This document shows positions 4,132 to 21,800 of a DNA stretch of 64,000 nucleotides, piece by piece. Source of the stretch: Mytilus galloprovincialis (lineage: Eukaryota; Mollusca; Bivalvia; Mytilida; Mytilidae); contig NC_134838.1 of assembly GCF_965363235.1 (NCBI RefSeq), positions 12,432,441 through 12,496,440 on the forward strand. The letters are read 5' to 3'. Position 1 is the stretch's first letter, and each line of letters begins with the position of its first letter. The position numbers and the translations under genes were made by a program. The notes beneath the pieces are model-generated. The model saw nothing but the letters and a program-made list of their open reading frames with translations. It searched no databases and had not been told where the DNA came from.

Positions 4132-5086
4132 TTAATTCTGTAAACCTGTCATTTTAAATGTCCACGCCCATTCACATGGCATTGTTTCCACAGACAATGG
4201 TGGTATCTGTATATTGATTCCCTTCCCACCAGCTCCAGCTTTCCATGTCACTTTGTCAGGATATCCCAACATACTGACAGTTGTGTCCTTTGATGTTATA
4301 GGAGCTCCAAGTTTTACCAAGTTACTGTCTGGCCATTCCAGCAGTATAGCATAAACATCAGTTTCTGTAGCTCCCTTCTTCATTGTATACCTAGAAAAAG
4401 ATGTATTCAATATTATATACTACAAGAATTTTAAGATTACAAAAACCATGAGACAAGATGTCAGACATTGTCTAAAATACTATTTGATATACATAAAAAT
4501 ACTTACAATCCATCTAGATAACTCTTTTCAACTTGGTTATTTGATCAAAAGTGTAAGTAGCAAAAAAATCTACCTAGTAAATTATCTGCATTTTCCATTA
4601 ACATCCCAGATACTTTTAAATAAATCATATGGCCTAATTTTTTTTTTTAATAAGATTGGATAAAATTAACCTTTATCACTGATCTATGAAATGAAATTGT
4701 GGTCAGATTAACCCTGTCTGACAGACATGTAGACCTGGCAAGGATCCAAACATCAAACATAAGTAGTTATCCTTTTATTCATAATTTAAAGCAAGTCAAG
4801 TTTTTGAAATGACAAAAAATATTCACTTTTTCTAGGAAATCACTGAACTAAGACGATTAGGTAAGGGACAATGGTCATATGACAGCAAAAACATTTTACT
4901 ATAAGGCATCTTTATACAAGGTGTGGGGCATACACATTTGTTTGTACCTTCTAAAGTATGAAGCTCTAAAAAGATATTTTATGCTGCAGCTGCTGTGGGA
5001 TTATCATTCTTATGTCTCGCATTTTGGGACTTTTGACCAAAATATAACTGTCTATAGGTTTAATCTGTTTACAAATAATTACTTAA

Positions 5087-5120
<34 letters not shown>

Positions 5121-8100
5121 CTTAGTTTGAAATTAAACTAGGGAGACTGATTTATATAAGAGCACTACTCTTGTTTCCTAATCCCTATTATTGCATCTTT
5201 TGTATATTTTGTATTTATGCCTTTACCCTTGTAGCTATATATATATATAACGATTTCTTAATTGTATATCTATTTTTATTAAATCTTAATTATTAGTTGT
5301 ACATCAGTGAACTATTTCTACATACCACACATTTTTAACAACAGTGTCATTCTGGTGAATCCAGGGTCTAGTTGCATAGATTCCATCTCCATTTACACGA
5401 AGCCATTGTCCCATCTGACGTAGTCTTTCTTCATAAATAGGACTGATCTTTCCATATTTTGTAGGACCAACATTCATCAGCATATTACCTCCGCAACTAA
5501 TGCAAAAATTGAAAAATACATCATGTCTACAAAATGTATACTTGTTTGTTAAAAATAAAGTAAGTCCTATTAATGAACAAATAAAAAAAAGAACAATTGT
5601 TTTTTTTTAAATCCATCAAGGTTCTGATGTGTAAATCATGACAAAGCAGGGTTCTGTTGGTTGTTTTTTTCATTGGCAATCATACATCTCCTTATTCTAT
5701 AGAGCCCACAAAAGACTATAGGATCCTACATCTCACTTAATGACTTATTTTCAAGGAGATAAAGTGGACTTAGTATAAAAACATTTATTTTGGAATGCCA
5801 AGTGCTTTCTTAATTACCTGACAGTAGAAATAAACTGTTTTAGAAGATCCTCTATTGTAAGGTAGTCTTCAAGCCTAGCGTTTCTACGGTATCCCCAGGA
5901 AAACTTGTCTATTGTCATAGCGTTTTCCCATTTGTGTTTCTGCAACTTGCCTTAAAACAAAAAATATATATATTCAATTAGGAAATAATAGATATAGGAA
6001 GATGTGGTGTGAGTGACAATGAGACAACTCTCCATCCAAATAACAATTTAAAAAAATTAAAGCATTATAGGTCAATGTACGGCCTTCAACACGGAGCCTT
6101 GGCTCACACCAAACAACAAGCTATAAAGGGCCCCAAAACTACTAGTGTAAAACCATTCAAACGGGAAGTTCATTTTCCACGTTCTATTTCTCTCAAGACA
6201 TACTACGTACACAATATACATGTTTGACTGATATTGACCTTTAACCTTATTACATGTAATTACTTTTTCACCTGTTATATAAACAGTTTTAATAATTCAA
6301 TGCTTTGTCGTACTTAATAATTCAAGTGAGTTTACTTAGCTTGTTTGCGTCCTGTCCATCAGAATCCAATAAACTTCTAATAATTATTAAAGGGAAACAT
6401 GATTATATCTCTCTTGGTATGGGTAACTATCTGTTACAATCAGTACATCAAAAATGAAAAGAAATTAGATATGACTTGCATAGTACCCTCAGTAGTCAAA
6501 GTATAATCCCTTATGTATAATAAAAGTAATAAAAAGCATTAAGTTAGGGAGAAATAAGCATATAACATTGTAAATACCTGGATTATATCTGTCAGAACAT
6601 GTATAAAATCCTCCATGTTTACAGGAACACCCAGATCCCCATCTATCATTGGTCACTACTGTATCTTTCACAGGACTGCAAAATTGAGAAAATTACTTAA
6701 CATATTGTATAAATCTTACTGAGAACCTTTATAATTAATAACTCTTACCAATCTGGTGTGATTTTTTTATTTATTTTAAGTGTTAACTTTAGTTCTGAAC
6801 TTGAGAAATACATAAAATAATCTAGAAAAAACCCAGTAGCGTATATATAAAAAAGAAGATGTGGTATGATTGCCAATGAGACAACTATCCACAAAATAAT
6901 CTTCTTTATCTAATGTTTGTGAAAACAATTTATGAGAATAAATGATGGCAAGTTTCAGATACAATATCTTATATTCCTATAGGCGCAATAAACTCACTCT
7001 GAAATACTTTGACAAGGCCAAGGGTTTCATATACAAAAACATTAATGTTTCTCTGCTCAGCAGATTTAAGAATTCAATTTGCCTCAAAAACATCTTTAAA
7101 AACGAAAATGTTGATACCATGGGGCAATCTCAGACTCAATATACATTACACTTGACAATTTGCTTGATATGGTCAAAATCATTGCCAAACAAATTTTAAG
7201 AAAATGTTTAGAAGTTTTAAGTTCATCAAAATCGTGGTCAATTTGAACACAGATTTCAAACATTATAAATTTAAGGTTTCAGTCTGCTACTTTTTATATA
7301 ATCTGCAGGTTGCTATTTTTGCAATTTGAAATGCATATGAAATATAACTAAAAACTTGAATATAGTGAAAAATTAAAGCCCTTTACCTGTTAAAACGTTC
7401 CATTCTGTAGTTACTCTTATAACTGAAGTTGATACTGACCTTTCATTATAAAGCCAAGCCAGGAAGTTGGTTGAATTCCAGTAGGCATCAGCAGCCTCCC
7501 AGTCTCCATCAGACCAAATAACTTCAGGCTTGTATGCATTCACCAGTTCATATAATTCAGGCATAGTCTTAGTCTGAAAAAGTAAATATAATCTAAAGAT
7601 AACTTTTACAGATACCTATACCTTACTCATAATCAGAAGAAGATGCAGGATACAAATGTACATTTATTTACTGTAAACAACTTATTTTCTTGAGCATTTT
7701 ATAAAGTATCCACAAAAGTAAGTTGGTTTACAGAATCCATGAATTCTGATGCTTAATCTCTGTTAAAAGTATAATATTACATTTCAGATAACTTTCAGTT
7801 TATAAAAATATATAAGTTAAACATCAAAGACTGCATCTTTGATAAATGTAAATAAAATTGCTTGACATATAGACATCCCAGTTGACAAAACAAAATAACT
7901 TATAAGTTTGTTACAAGAATGTGTCCAAAGTACACTGATGCCCCACTAGCCCTATCCTTTTCCATGTTCCATGGACAGTGAAATTGGGTAATTATCTAAT
8001 TTGGCATTAAAATTAGAAAGATCATATCATAAGCAACAAGTGTACTAAGTTTCAAGTTGATTGGACTTCAGCTTCATCAAAAACTACCTTGACCAAAAAC

Positions 8101-10088
8101 TTTAACCTGAAACTCCCACTTTCATTTTCTATGTTCAGTGGACCGTGAAATTGGGGTCAAAAGTCTAATCTGGCTTAAAAATTAGAAAGATCATCTCATA
8201 AACAACAAGTGTACTAAGTTTCAAGTTGATTGGACTTCAGCTTCATCCAAAAACTACCTTGACCAAAAACTTTAACCTGAACGGACGAACGGAACCACAG
8301 ATGGGCGGACGGACGAACGGAGCCACAGACCAGAAAACATAATGCCCCTCTACTATCGTAGGTGGGGCATAAAAACATTACCCTGACAAAATCTTGTTTT
8401 TTAAATCCTGAGTCTTTGTCATCCAAATATCTTGGATTAAACCATTCAAACAGAGAGTGGTACAGTCCAAACTTCATCTGGGTTTTAGCTCTCACTGCAG
8501 CTGCTAACTCACCTGTAAACAATAAGAATTTAAAGCTAATATGTTTATATTATTTATGTTACATTAGATAAAGTGTTTAACTTAATTGTACCAAGTAATG
8601 AAAAATATTTATAATTTACATTTAAAGTTCATTTCAGAATTGAATGCCTCTTTTTGTAACTTCATTGGGGTGTAAAAGCGTTGACCGAAGTACATTTTGT
8701 ATAAACCGTAGAAGCTGAGTGTAATAATTATTCATCAATAGATGCATACATGTATGTGACTATATTTTCAGGTGGACTTCTAACCACATCTCCCTTTATT
8801 CATATAACATGCAGTAAAGTAGTAATAAAATCTTACCAACAAGATCTCTGTTAGGACCAGTAGCATTAGAATTCCAGTTAAAGGAATACTTAGATGGCCA
8901 GTTGGTGTAACCTTCATGATGTTTACTTGTCAAAACAATATATCTATAAATGCAGTAAAATAACTGATTAAAAAAAATCAACATCAGAATGTATGATAAT
9001 TTATCATTGATAAATTAATGTACATGTAGTGTGACGAGATTGCTTCCCTTAGAAAAACTTAGTAGATACTTAGTCAGCCGTAAGCTGTTGAGCTAAGGAA
9101 GTACTTCTTTAGCTCAATCCGTTAGCGCGCTGCCTTGTAACACAGAGATCCCGGGTTCGAGTCCCAGTGGAGACAAGCAATTTTGTAATGAAATTCATGC
9201 ACTCTGGTTACATTGGCGCCCAACAATAATAACCCACGGTTAGAAGAATTACCTAGCCAGGTTAAAATTTAAATATAAAAAAGATGAAAATATCCTCATT
9301 ATAGAGTATGACTCTTGAGGTGTGGGAAGTGTGACAGGATTGCTTCCCTTAGAAAAACTTAGTAGATACTTAGTAAGCGGTAAGTAGTTGAGCTAAGGAA
9401 GTACTTCTTTAGCTCAGTCGGTTAGCGCGCTGCCTTGTAACACAGAGGTCTCGGGTGCGAGTCCCAGAGTAGACAAGCAATTTTGTAATGAAATTCATGC
9501 TCTCTGGTTACAGTAGCAAGATAATGAAAAAATATTTAGCAAAAATGCTGAACAACTGGTTTTATATTGAAAAAAATGTAAAGGGTTCTGCAGAACTCTG
9601 TGTCTGACTCTCACTCTGGGATTGCTACTGTCAGTCTTAATGTGTAATGTTGACTTTTAATTAAAAATATGATTCTTTAATATGATGATTTGTAAACATT
9701 ACAGAATTTATTTCCACACTTTTCTTCATTAGGACAGGAACAATTCTTACTTTGCACCAGAATCCTGAAACATTTCAGCCCATTCCTCTGGAACAAAAAA
9801 CTCAGTTGTGAACATAGCTGCAAAATCTGCATAAGTAAAATCTGGACGGTAGTTTTTCTGCATGTAATCCAAAACAGCCGGCATTGGCTGGCCTTTCCAT
9901 TGCCACCAAAACCACTCTGATGAAAAGGCTGGTACAGAAAATACACCCCAGTGAATAAATATACCAAGCTTAGCATCATCATACCATCCTGGAAGTGGTC
10001 TTGCATCTAAAGATTCCCATGTTGGGTCGTATTTCAATGAATTGACAAACGAAAATAGCAAAACAAAACAAACCAGGTAAGTGGCCAT
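4132..10088 (-). CDS. Alpha-L-fucosidase, GH29, tandem copy A (8 exons)
   Basis: Predicted to hydrolyse terminal alpha-L-fucose from glycans, in lysosomes or after secretion. Exons in coding order: 9751-10088, 8837-8943, 8382-8512, 7440-7573, 6578-6675, 5818-5950, 5326-5496, 4132-4390. All introns are GT-AG, phases agree, and the total is 1371 nt (456 aa plus stop), the usual size for animal FUCA1. Residues 1-17 form a signal peptide; the Met at 10088 is preferred to an in-frame one 24 nt upstream because the hydrophobic segment then starts properly. Family motifs seen: FIHWG with His46, SEWFWW (Glu58, Trp59), SKHHEGY (His121, His122), VIWSDGDW with the expected nucleophile Asp214, then [22 protein letters not shown] and SCGGN. 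The C-terminal exon encodes the beta-sandwich-like region. Copy B lies 8.7 kb away in the same orientation with identical exon lengths. Intron 1 carries an LTR mini-element and intron 3 a satellite element. Confidence 0.95.
5085..5120. repeat. Poly-T tract in fucosidase A intron 7
   Basis: About 30 consecutive T, between the last two exons of fucosidase copy A. A homopolymer; assembly length here may be unreliable. Confidence 0.8.
5995..6215 (+). repeat. Dispersed mussel-type repeat in fucosidase A intron 5
   Basis: Begins with a diverged form of GATGTGGTATGATTGCCAAT and runs through modules (AATGAGACAAC, GTCAATGTACGGCCTTCAAC, GGCCCCAAAACTACTAGTGT, CATTCAAACGGGAA) that recur at 20925-21090 (inverted), 41285-41470, 56810-57240 and 59010-59155. 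The same modules form the 3' tail of the reverse-transcriptase element at 57841-59155, so this is probably a truncated retroposed copy or a SINE-like derivative. The open frame across it is not a gene. Confidence 0.65.
6850..6905 (+). repeat. Short copy of the same tail repeat
   Basis: Contains GATGTGGTATGATTGCCAAT followed by GAGACAACTATCCACA, inside fucosidase A intron 4. Only the terminal module is present, as expected for heavily 5'-truncated retroposition. Confidence 0.6.
7905..8376 (-). mobile_element. Pearl/Helentron-like satellite element in fucosidase A intron 3
   Basis: In element orientation (minus strand) it starts near 8376 with TTTTTATGCCCC, forms a hairpin (8342-8370), has a TCCG/TTCG microsatellite (about 8280-8330), then two tandem units of about 170 bp whose core is AAAGTTTTTGGTCAAGGTAG, and ends near 7910 with GTGTACTTTGGACACATTCT. 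Related copies with the same core and end lie at 33290-33595 and 49560-50245. Its hairpin end lies only a few bases from the 5' splice site of exon 3 (intron starts at 8381). Confidence 0.7.
9030..9512 (+). mobile_element. LTR-type mini-element (TRIM) with tRNA-derived LTRs
   Basis: Two direct repeats of 183 bp, at 9030-9212 and 9330-9512, start TG and end CA and flank 117 bp of non-coding DNA. Directly after the first repeat is a primer-binding-site-like stretch (TTGGCGCCCAACAATAATAA) of the kind seen in Ty3/gypsy elements; a purine-rich stretch (GAGGTGTGGGAAG) directly precedes the second. The flanks share GTAG (9026-9029 and 9513-9516). Each LTR contains a tRNA-like region with A box TTAGCTCAGTCGGTTAGCGC (second copy), a TGT anticodon-like position and B box GGTTCGAGTCC (first copy). 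It codes for nothing and looks structurally whole. The LTRs resemble each other closely but not fully, so the insertion is moderately old. It lies in fucosidase A intron 1. Confidence 0.75.
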
Positions 10089-10400
10089 TTTGTTTTCACG
10101 TGATGAAAACAAAATTATGTCACATGATATGTACTCAGGTATGCAGACCAGAGGTTAAGCTTCAAGTCCGAGTCATGACAAAATATTGTACAAGTGATAT
10201 ATGTTAACACAGCAGAGCTATCAATTCGATGCTAAATATTCGTGACAAAGATGTTTTGTATATCCCTGTCGTTTTATCTACAAACCATACAGAAATAATT
10301 AATAGTATGCCACAACGGACGTTTAGACCACACACTCATCGAGCTCACCGAAATTAGACAAATACACAAATCTGCATGTAATTTTTTAACATTCAGTAAA
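10089..10400 (-). promoter_or_regulatory. Upstream region of fucosidase copy A, shared with copy B
   Basis: The stretch upstream of the start codon matches that upstream of copy B. The clearest block begins GTATGCCACAACGGACG (10306 here; equivalent near 29694) and continues past CAAATCTGCA. The duplicated unit therefore carried its own 5' flank. No TATA box is convincingly placed, so promoter function is inferred from position and conservation only. Confidence 0.45.
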
Positions 10401-18808: not shown

Positions 18809-21800
18809 TTAATTCTGTAAACCTGTCATTTTAAATGTCCACGCCCATTTACATGGCATTGTTTTCACAGACAAGGGCGGTATCTGTATATTGATTCCTT
18901 TCCCACCAACTCCTGTTGTCCATGTCACTTTGTCAGGATATCCCAACATGTTGACAGTTGTATCACTAGATGTTATAGGTGCTCCAAGTTTTACCAAGTT
19001 ATTGTCTGGCCATTCCAGCAGTATGGCATACACATCAGTTTCTGTTGCCCCCTTCTTCATTGTATACCTAGAAAAATGTATTGAGTATTGTATATAATTT
19101 GAATTTAAAGACTACAAATACTACTATGATAACAAGATGCAAGTTGATGTCTATAAAAATATTGAATACAGGAATAACAAACAACACCTCAAAACGTTTG
19201 TCTCACAATTTCAATTGTCATATTTTAGACATTGCAAGAGCAGATTTTGAGATTTACCTGTTTAATAGTAGGTAAGAGGCACATACGCAATTTCTCCAGT
19301 AAAGTGTGAGTTCCTAAGAACACCTAGATAACTTATGTGTAGTGTCGGAAATTTTTCAGAATAGTTATTTTAAATCAAATTGGTATATTCAAGACTCTAT
19401 ACCTCCCCTATGAAATAATCAAATAGTTATTTAGTAGGAAAAAAATCACTGTTTTAAGTCATATTTCACCTTGAATGTGTAATCTATGAATCTATTTACC
19501 AGTACATGAAAATAATGAATCAATTTAACTAATTCTTTATGATCTCTTGCTGAGATATTTTTTTACCCACGTGATCAGCTGTATATTATTGATTGTTCAT
19601 CAGTATACTATTTCTACATACCACACATTTTTAACAACAGTGTCATTCTGGTGAACCCATGGTCTAGTTCCATAGATTCCATCTCCATTTACACGTAGCC
19701 ATTGTCCCATCTGACGGAGTCTTTCTTGATATAGAGGACTAATAGTTCCATATTTTGTGGGACCAACACTCATCAACAAATTACCTCCACAGCTAAATAC
19801 AGATATTTATATAATTGAAATATGTTACATAAATTTATACTCCATGTACTGATTTGAACTAAATAAGATATATGTAAAGGGCAAATGAATAAATCAAAAT
19901 GATTGTGCAAATAAAAAGGTCAATACTTCAGTAAAATACAGAAAAAGCAAAACAAATATTTTGAAATTGTCTTCTCGAAGCTGTTGCTGGATTAGGAAAA
20001 TACTTCTGTCCAAGTTTCCTTAAAATTCCATTAAGATTTGAAAAAGTCATTAGACTGGAACACTTTCCCCACAATCTGTACCTAACTGTTGACAATGCAG
20101 GTAACTCTGTTTACAGAACATACACCATGTCTGGCCTTCATCACTGTTTTCTAACAGGAATAAAATAATTGTACTTTTAAAATACTAGCATGAAAACATT
20201 TAAGGAAGACTTAGTGCTTTGTTTATTACCTGACAGTAGAAATAAGCTGGGATAGAAGCTGTTCTATTGTTAGGAAATCTTCAATCCTAGCATTTCTGCG
20301 GAATCCCCAGGAAAACTTGTCAATTGTCATTGCATTCTCCCATTTATGTTTCTGCAGCTTGCCTTTTAAATATCATAAAATACAAATATATTTAGTTTTA
20401 AAATGAACTTATGATTCACAGTCTTCTAAAAGTGAAACTGCATAAGATATTATACAATGTACATTCCTTCACTGCTATTCTTCTTTAACCTCATTCCATG
20501 CAATAAGTTTTACAGCTCAGTGTTAGATAAACATGATAAACAGTTACAATTTTTATTCAATGCTTAGCCATACTTTTTAGTTTAAGTGAGTTTACATAGT
20601 TTGTATGATTCCTGCCTTTAAAGGAAAAATTAAAATTGATTTCCAGTACCTAACAGATACATGTGTATAACTCTCTCAGCATTTCCAATTAAATATTGCA
20701 TCATGAAGGAAAAGAAACTAAATTCAACTCTTTGAATAACACCCTTGGAGTGAAAGTAGTATCCTAGGAACAGTTAATAGGCAGAAGATACCAAGAGACA
20801 TTCAAAACTAAGAAGTTGAGGAGTAATTGACAAAGCCATGGCAATATTAGGGGAAAAAATTGATGAAAGACCAAAAGTTCTCAAATTGCTATATAGAAAA
20901 CTAAAACAAATAAGCATTGATTTCCCATTTGAATGGTTTTACACCCGTATTTTTTGGGGTCCGTTATAGCTTACTGTTTGGTGTGAGCCAAGGCTCTGTT
21001 TTGAAAACCTATAATTAGTTTACTTTTACAAATTGTACTTTATGACTTGGATGAAGAGTTATCTCATACCACATATTCTTATATTTATATTTCACACTAA
21101 TATTGTATATACCTGGATTATATCTATCAGTACATGAAAAAAATCCACCATGTTTACAAGGACATCCATGTCCCCATCTATCATTGGCAACTATTGTATC
21201 CTTAACTGGACTGCAAAGTTCAATAAAATTATAGATTACATATTGTACAGTTTTTACACTGAAATTTACACAGGTTCTTAGAACAAACCAAATTATAAGG
21301 ATGCCTACTTCTAAATAGTGTTGTGTGAAAATTTAAAAGATATAAATAAACCTCAATTAATTCTGGAATTGAGAAATGTTTCAATAAAATCTTGAAAATG
21401 AAGAAGTAACAAAATTGTGTATCTGATTCTTGTGAAAACATTTGTACGATAATAAGTAAAGGAAAATTTCATACACAATGTCTTATAAACATGATATGAG
21501 CAACAGCCTCACCAAAAAATGTACTTTGTTGAATGGAGGTCTCATACAAAAATGTTGATGTTAGTAAAATAGTCTCTATGGGTAAACCTGCTACTAAAAT
21601 TTATAAAAGGATATTAAATGCTTGTTGAAATTTCCAATTTTGAATTAAACAGGTTGGGAACAACACTCCAAATGAGGGGAAACCCTCATTGGAAGAACAT
21701 TACAACCCACTGTAAAAATGAGCACCTTTATATTCATATTATTTGATAAAACTTTTCATAAGAACTATGCATCTATCGAGTATTAAATGGACAAAACATG

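What the first reader, a model, noticed from the sequence alone, without database searches (positions are those of the whole stretch)
9030..9512. LTR mini-element whose LTRs carry a tRNA-derived pol III promoter
183-bp direct repeats start TG and end CA, are followed by a gypsy-type primer-binding-like stretch and preceded by a purine tract, as in a TRIM; the LTRs also contain tRNA-like A and B boxes and a TGT anticodon-like position. Plant Cassandra TRIMs carry 5S rRNA in their LTRs in an analogous way; an animal tRNA-LTR version would be a notable parallel. The tRNA-like part has weak acceptor pairing, so it is a derived promoter and not a working tRNA.
Basis: partly seen in the sequence, partly recalled or inferred. 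Interest (0 to 1): 0.85.

Follow-up and report, generated by a model that had tools for sequence, protein, structure and literature searches.

The report
Mussel mini-retrotransposon with tRNA-like promoter
This is one old copy of a family of tiny jumping elements, most likely in a mussel, whose end repeats carry a tRNA-derived switch; the kind was described in 2024 as Helenus, but a few copies have a mirror-image end that seems to record where their RNA begins.

Summary
Window 9030-9512 is LTR (183 bp), internal part (117 bp), LTR (183 bp), flanked by a GTAG target duplication. An LTR/primer-site pattern gives 95 genomic places against 0 in the reversed control; 94 of 95 hold this element. Of 45 copies where a script found both outer LTRs complete, 38 have an exact 4-bp target duplication. 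The LTRs hold a degraded tRNA-like stretch with A and B boxes, below Rfam's tRNA cut-off. The primer site matches host tRNA-Lys(CUU). The kind is published: Kojima 2024 (PMC10886601) named it Helenus, with Mytilus in its host table.

Not seen in my literature searches: at 6 of 96 junction places the 5' LTR begins with an inverted U5/R segment. In three it reaches back to LTR position 70-76, and in a fourth the direct part starts at 73, about 8 nt before box A, as expected if the RNA starts there. One of the six has a provable target duplication. Pol III transcription and the autonomous partner remain unproven.

The parts
9026..9029 (.). left copy of the 4-bp target duplication GTAG
9030..9212 (+). 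5' LTR (183 bp), TGTGAC...GTTACA
9081..9124 (+). near-palindrome at the inferred U3/R boundary (LTR 52-95); centre between 9102 and 9103
   Evidence: in the family copy L002 18 of 22 inverted match, 0 of 2000 shuffles as good; in the window also repeat finder I4
9103..9103 (+). inferred RNA start (LTR position 74)
   Evidence: inference from breakpoints of inverted 5' LTRs in other copies; not shown by RNA data
9110..9121 (+). box A-like (LTR 81-92), TAGCTCAATCCG
9154..9164 (+). box B-like (LTR 125-135), GGTTCGAGTCC
9181..9184 (+). TTTT, the only run of four or more T in this LTR; candidate pol III stop
   Evidence: these columns do not vary in 89 LTRs
9213..9329 (+). internal part, type A, 117 bp
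9214..9224 (+). [quoted passage not shown]
9320..9329 (+). purine tract GTGTGGGAAG before the 3' LTR (GGGGGAAG in many copies)
9330..9512 (+). 3' LTR (183 bp); 14 of 183 bases differ from the 5' LTR
9513..9516 (.). right copy of the target duplication GTAG

Best explanation
An old copy of a Helenus-type TRIM: a non-coding LTR retrotransposon of about 0.5 kb with a tRNA-derived stretch in its LTRs. Its RNA most likely starts inside the 5' LTR at about LTR position 74, 8 nt before box A, driven by boxes A and B and RNA polymerase III, reads through the single TTTT of the 5' LTR and ends at the TTTT of the 3' LTR, so that R is about positions 74-155. tRNA-Lys(CUU) would prime the first DNA strand at the PBS and the purine tract the second. 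Reverse transcriptase and an integrase that makes 4-bp target duplications would come from an autonomous LTR element, probably of the Gypsy type. Shown here: anatomy, copy number, target duplications, solo LTRs, tandem forms, primer complementarity. Inferred: polymerase, RNA ends, partner.
For: 95 junction places against 0 in control, 94 of 95 with element parts; 38 of 45 copies with an exact 4-bp duplication, including 4 of 4 arrays of 3-4 LTRs; five solo LTRs with it; PBS complementary to host tRNA-Lys(CUU); full-length alignment of LTR 74-146 to the Rfam tRNA model; one TTTT run per LTR in the three copies checked, invariant in 89 LTRs; match to published Helenus anatomy, 4-bp duplications and host genus; breakpoints of inverted 5' LTRs near position 74.
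Against: The tRNA-like stretch scores below the Rfam cut-off (26.7 against 29) in three of four loci and not at all in the window's copy. The TTTT lies in the 5' LTR too, so a full RNA needs read-through. Boxes A and B vary only slightly less than the LTR mean (0.017 and 0.022 against 0.030). No partner element was identified. 7 of 45 copies lack the exact 4-bp duplication (two are mis-chained array units).
Confidence: 0.88

Rival explanations
1. A tRNA-derived SINE that inserted twice 300 bp apart.
For: The repeat unit alone resembles a tRNA-headed element, and single units exist (five solo LTRs).
Against: The two-unit form recurs at many places with an outer 4-bp duplication (38 of 45); an internal part with PBS and purine tract is shared; the five solo units have 4-bp duplications, as LTR-LTR recombination leaves them.
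Confidence: 0.01
2. Same element, but the RNA is made by RNA polymerase II from the U3 region, and the tRNA-like part is a passenger (a TRIM with a dead SINE or tRNA insert).
For: The tRNA-like part is below the Rfam cut-off and does not fold like a tRNA; no RNA data exist here.
Against: Box B and a near-complete box A are kept in the family; the breakpoints near position 74 lie 8 nt before box A; one TTTT run per LTR.
Confidence: 0.2
3. The inverted 5' LTRs are not reverse-transcription products but later rearrangements at the palindrome, unrelated to the RNA start.
For: Position 73/74 is the centre of a strong near-palindrome. Two of six inverted segments end elsewhere (83 and 124). A provable outer duplication exists in one of six; L069 shows none.
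Against: L014 keeps AAAG on both outer sides, outside an inverted left end TGTAAC. In L014, L069 and L122 the direct part resumes far from the palindrome (108, 175, 169). Five of six left ends begin exactly TGTAAC, the inverted end of U5.
Confidence: 0.4

Closest known systems
Helenus (Kojima 2024, PMC10886601; parts 1-5 of 6 and passages read)
   Same: TRIM under 1 kb with a tRNA-derived sequence in the LTRs; PBS and purine tract; 4-bp duplications in animals; tRNA-Lys among bivalve primers; tandem arrays and solo LTRs reported; Mytilus galloprovincialis and M. coruscus in Table 1
   Different: The paper's main text does not contain the word 'inverted' or 'transcription start'; inverted 5' LTRs and a mapped RNA start are additions here. 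Identity with one of its 51 bivalve families was not checkable.
Cassandra (plants; as described in PMC10886601)
   Same: TRIM with a small-RNA-gene promoter in the LTRs; RNA said to start in the 5' LTR and stop in the 3' LTR; tandem arrays
   Different: 5S rRNA-derived, not tRNA-derived; plants; its pol III transcription is called validated there, here it is not
biv-TRIM (PMC6934838; first part and passages read)
   Same: Bivalve TRIM with tandem and solo forms, reported in Mytilus
   Different: Terminal repeats 202-218 bp, internal 77-80 bp, purine tract GGGGAGA, no clear PBS; here 183, about 120 or 103, GGGGGAAG, clear PBS
tRNA-derived SINE (SINE2)
   Same: tRNA-like head with boxes A and B
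   Different: No LTRs, PBS, purine tract or short integrase-type duplication (recalled definition)
Self-priming of HIV-1 minus-strand strong-stop DNA (PMC4668388, passages read)
   Same: Strong-stop DNA primes on itself instead of transferring; would give inverted R-U5 copies
   Different: Here seen as integrated genomic copies of a TRIM; the mechanism is inferred

Membership tests
Helenus | Under 1 kb, two LTRs, non-coding (TRIM) | tested here: met
   483-493 bp in the first eight best matches; LTR-internal-LTR at many places
Helenus | tRNA-derived sequence with boxes A and B in the LTRs | tested here: met
   LTR 74-146 aligns to the whole tRNA model in 3 of 4 loci, 26.7 bits, below the gathering score of 29; none in the window's own copy
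Helenus | PBS just after the 5' LTR | tested here: met
   11 nt complementary to host tRNA-Lys(CUU) with CCA
Helenus | Purine tract before the 3' LTR | tested here: met
   GTGTGGGAAG in the window, GGGGGAAG in many copies
Helenus | 4-bp target duplications (animal Helenus) | tested here: met
   38 of 45 complete copies; five solo LTRs
Helenus | PBS shared with an autonomous Gypsy element of the same genome | tested here: inconclusive
   Six other LTR-like places with the same PBS; one with a 354-residue open frame, no significant Pfam match for its first 120 residues
Helenus | Transcription by RNA polymerase III (expected, not shown, by its author) | not testable with these tools
   No RNA data
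Helenus | Identity to a named Repbase family | not testable with these tools
Cassandra | 5S rRNA sequence in the LTR | tested here: not met
   No 5S match in the window at gathering threshold, nor in four loci at E up to 1
biv-TRIM | Terminal repeats 202-218 bp, internal 77-80 bp, purine tract GGGGAGA | tested here: not met
   183 bp, 120 or 103 bp at the mode, GGGGGAAG; definition
SINE | Single unit without LTRs | tested here: not met
   Two-LTR copies with outer target duplications

The most novel reading that the evidence does not exclude
At a small share of places (6 of 96) an inverted copy of U5 plus R replaces the start of the 5' LTR. These are fossils of reverse transcription: minus-strand strong-stop DNA primed on itself or served as a template, and the product was integrated because the inverted U5 end TGTAAC is a proper integrase end. 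Their breakpoints map the RNA 5' end of a tRNA-promoter LTR element from genome sequence alone, at LTR position about 74, 8 nt before box A. The fixed near-palindrome at U3/R may itself be an old product of the same error.
Probability: 0.5. Interest if true: 0.6.

Novelty: already known. Interest (0 to 1): 0.35.

Why it matters
It supports, in one whole genome, that a published but experimentally untested group (Helenus) behaves as a true LTR retrotransposon family with recent insertions (four two-LTR copies with no LTR-LTR mismatch). If the inverted 5' LTRs are strong-stop fossils, RNA starts and reverse-transcription errors of such elements can be read from genomes, which would make the open pol III question for Helenus testable by sequence comparison.

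Tried and rejected
SINE inserted twice: rejected by outer target duplications. biv-TRIM and Cassandra: rejected by anatomy. A functional tRNA: not supported.

Autonomous partner. The family's LTR end plus PBS gave 81 places; two were not in the list, and both (L069, L070) proved to be this element. A purine-tract/LTR-start pattern meant to exclude the family gave two places, both family copies (L090; L089). A pattern excluding the family's LTR end gave six other LTR-like places; frames were read (one 354-residue open frame) and its first 120 residues gave no significant Pfam match (best E 0.23). Partner not identified.

Source of the tRNA-like part: one exact pattern for the same core preceded by a non-T gave 0 places, a narrow test. 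tRNA genes near insertions: none by ARAGORN in the 46 loci given, but ARAGORN also does not call a host tRNA-Lys copy that carries an insert, so this says little.

Literature: searches (inverted, strong-stop, self-priming; Helenus, TRIMp3) listed nothing reporting inverted 5' LTRs of such elements; listings only, in an open-access library.

Full report
WHAT IS THERE. The window carries two direct repeats of 183 bp (9030-9212, 9330-9512) around 117 bp. They start TGTGAC and end GTTACA. The internal part starts T-TGGCGCCCAAC and ends GTGTGGGAAG. GTAG stands on both sides, a 4-bp target duplication. The two LTRs differ at 14 of 183 bases, so this copy is old. It lies between two coding pieces of an alpha-L-fucosidase-like gene on the minus strand (PF01120 in 9747-10094 and 8214-8549), so it most likely sits in an intron, antisense to that gene.

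HOST. The genome has 1.385 Gb in 331 contigs. A myticin model (PF10690) matches 17 places over its cut-off and 0 of 14 control genomes.

THE FAMILY IN THE GENOME. A 24-nt LTR/PBS pattern with up to 2 mismatches gives 95 places and 0 for the reversed control. An LTR-start pattern gives 131 against 0 (only part of its places are listed, and 30 loci were fetched). I placed all 95 junctions in fetched DNA and annotated each: 94 hold parts of the element and 1 (C12:29224299) does not. A script rule found 45 copies with both outer LTRs complete; 38 have an exact 4-bp target duplication, against 1 in 256 by chance. The 45 include 4 arrays with 3-4 LTRs, 4 of 4 with the duplication. Of the 7 without it, two (L085, L088) are array units that the rule chained wrongly, and one (L022) has a 7-bp repeat TTGTGAG instead. 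The other 50 of the 95 were set aside by the rule: 24 with a 5' LTR that is incomplete or inverted (the non-member is in this class), 19 with an incomplete 3' LTR, 7 inner units of arrays. A count on the first loci had given 15 of 17, five loci being left out as duplicates. Among 89 distinct complete LTRs, 39 are 5' LTRs, 35 are 3' LTRs, 5 lie inside arrays, 5 are solo with a 4-bp duplication and 5 were unclassified; by their printed flanks those five look like 5' or 3' LTRs with a changed PBS or purine tract. Of the 41 two-LTR copies by rule, 4 have no mismatch between their LTRs and the median is 3 of 183, so recent insertions exist.

TWO INTERNAL TYPES. Type A (42 complete, most often 120 bp, range 105-130) and type B (30 complete, most often 103 bp, range 96-105) share the PBS end and about the last 27 nt before the 3' LTR but not the middle, while their LTRs are alike. 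Exchange of internal parts between co-packaged RNAs would explain this (inference).

tRNA-LIKE PART. cmscan aligns LTR positions 74-146 to the whole tRNA model at 26.7 bits in 3 of 4 loci given (gathering score 29); the fourth, the window's own copy, gave none. ARAGORN finds no tRNA. The 82-nt stretch of L002 folds no better than shuffles (z +1.29). Box A (81-92) and box B (125-135) vary a little less than the LTR mean (0.017 and 0.022 against 0.030). This is weak evidence, since copies of one family share descent. On the sense strand the three copies checked have exactly one run of four T per LTR, at 152-155, and none in the internal part. Those four columns do not vary in 89 LTRs. If pol III stops there, R would be about positions 74-155, and the RNA must read through the same signal in the 5' LTR.

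PRIMER. One copy read in full ends GTTGGGCG. With CCA added (established knowledge) this is complementary to 11 nt of the PBS. That copy has an insert in its anticodon region and ARAGORN does not call it, so that one copy may not be a working gene.

PARTNER. No autonomous element with the same LTR ends and PBS was found. Six other LTR-like ends with the same PBS exist; one has a 354-residue open frame downstream, with no significant Pfam match for its first 120 residues. The longer stretches were not fetched.

INVERTED 5' LTRs. At six places the element begins with an inverted U5/R segment: L014, L019, L069, L077, L097, L122. Five are among the 94 junction places that hold the element; the sixth, L069, is one of the two further places; hence 6 of 96. 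The inverted segment runs from LTR position 183 (181 in L122) back to 70-74 in L014 (the palindrome blurs the end), 74 in L069, 76 in L122, 83 in L077 and 124 in L019. In L097 the script's alignment runs on through the palindrome to 60; read by eye, the inverted part ends at 83 and the direct part starts at 73. The copy then goes on in direct orientation from 108 (L014), 147 (L019), 140 (L077, after a second inverted piece), 169 (L122) or 175 (L069) into the PBS. Five of six left ends begin exactly TGTAAC, the inverted end of U5. L014 has AAAG on both outer sides. For the others no duplication could be shown: the right end is lost (L019, L122), rearranged (L077) or degraded (L097, L069). The reading I prefer: minus-strand strong-stop DNA, which runs from the PBS to the RNA 5' end, primed on itself or was copied during reverse transcription, and its U5 end served as an integrase end. 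Position 74 then marks the RNA start, 8 nt before box A, as fits a tRNA-type promoter. Self-priming of strong-stop DNA is described for HIV-1 (PMC4668388, passages). Against it: position 73/74 is also the centre of a strong near-palindrome (18 of 22 in L002, 0 of 2000 shuffles as good), two of the six inverted segments end elsewhere (83, 124), and only one place has a provable outer duplication.

WHAT IS KNOWN. Kojima 2024 (PMC10886601; parts 1-5 of 6 read; passages) describes Helenus: TRIMs with tRNA-derived LTR sequence, PBS, purine tract, 4-bp duplications in animals, PBS similarity to Gypsy, tRNA-Lys among bivalve primers, seven bivalve families able to encode tRNA-Thr, tandem arrays in zebrafish, 51 bivalve families, and Mytilus galloprovincialis and M. 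coruscus in Table 1. The element here meets the Helenus features that could be tested, except that a Gypsy partner was not confirmed. Whether it is one of the 51 families could not be checked. biv-TRIM (PMC6934838; first part, passages) is different. PMC9278108 (passages) deals with asymmetric HIV-1 LTRs, not inverted ones.

VERDICT. The kind is already published, in the likely host genus. The inverted 5' LTRs are the part worth following.

Noticed in passing
G000:C3:91582337-91660645; locus L134: An array of tRNA-Lys(CUU)-like matches (61 places, about 1.13 kb apart); the one copy read has an insert in its anticodon region that repeats GAGCACGAGACTCTT.
   Followed up: partly
Locus L022 (G000:C6:8925265): A complete copy flanked by a 7-bp repeat TTGTGAG instead of a 4-bp duplication.
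   Followed up: no
Loci L048 and L002: Same LTRs with two different internal middles (type A and type B), as if internal parts had been exchanged.
   Followed up: partly
Locus L068, 264-1533 (minus strand): A copy whose internal part holds an insert with GGGTTGGCAAAAACCCGGG-like inverted ends, which looks like a nested MITE.
   Followed up: no
Locus L096 (G000:C14:18656127-18659144): An LTR-like end ATCACA followed by the same primer site and, downstream, a 354-residue open frame with no significant Pfam match for its first 120 residues.
   Followed up: partly
window 4132-10094, minus strand: An alpha-L-fucosidase-like gene in pieces around the element; a second similar C-terminal-like frame lies at 18809-19111.
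   Followed up: partly
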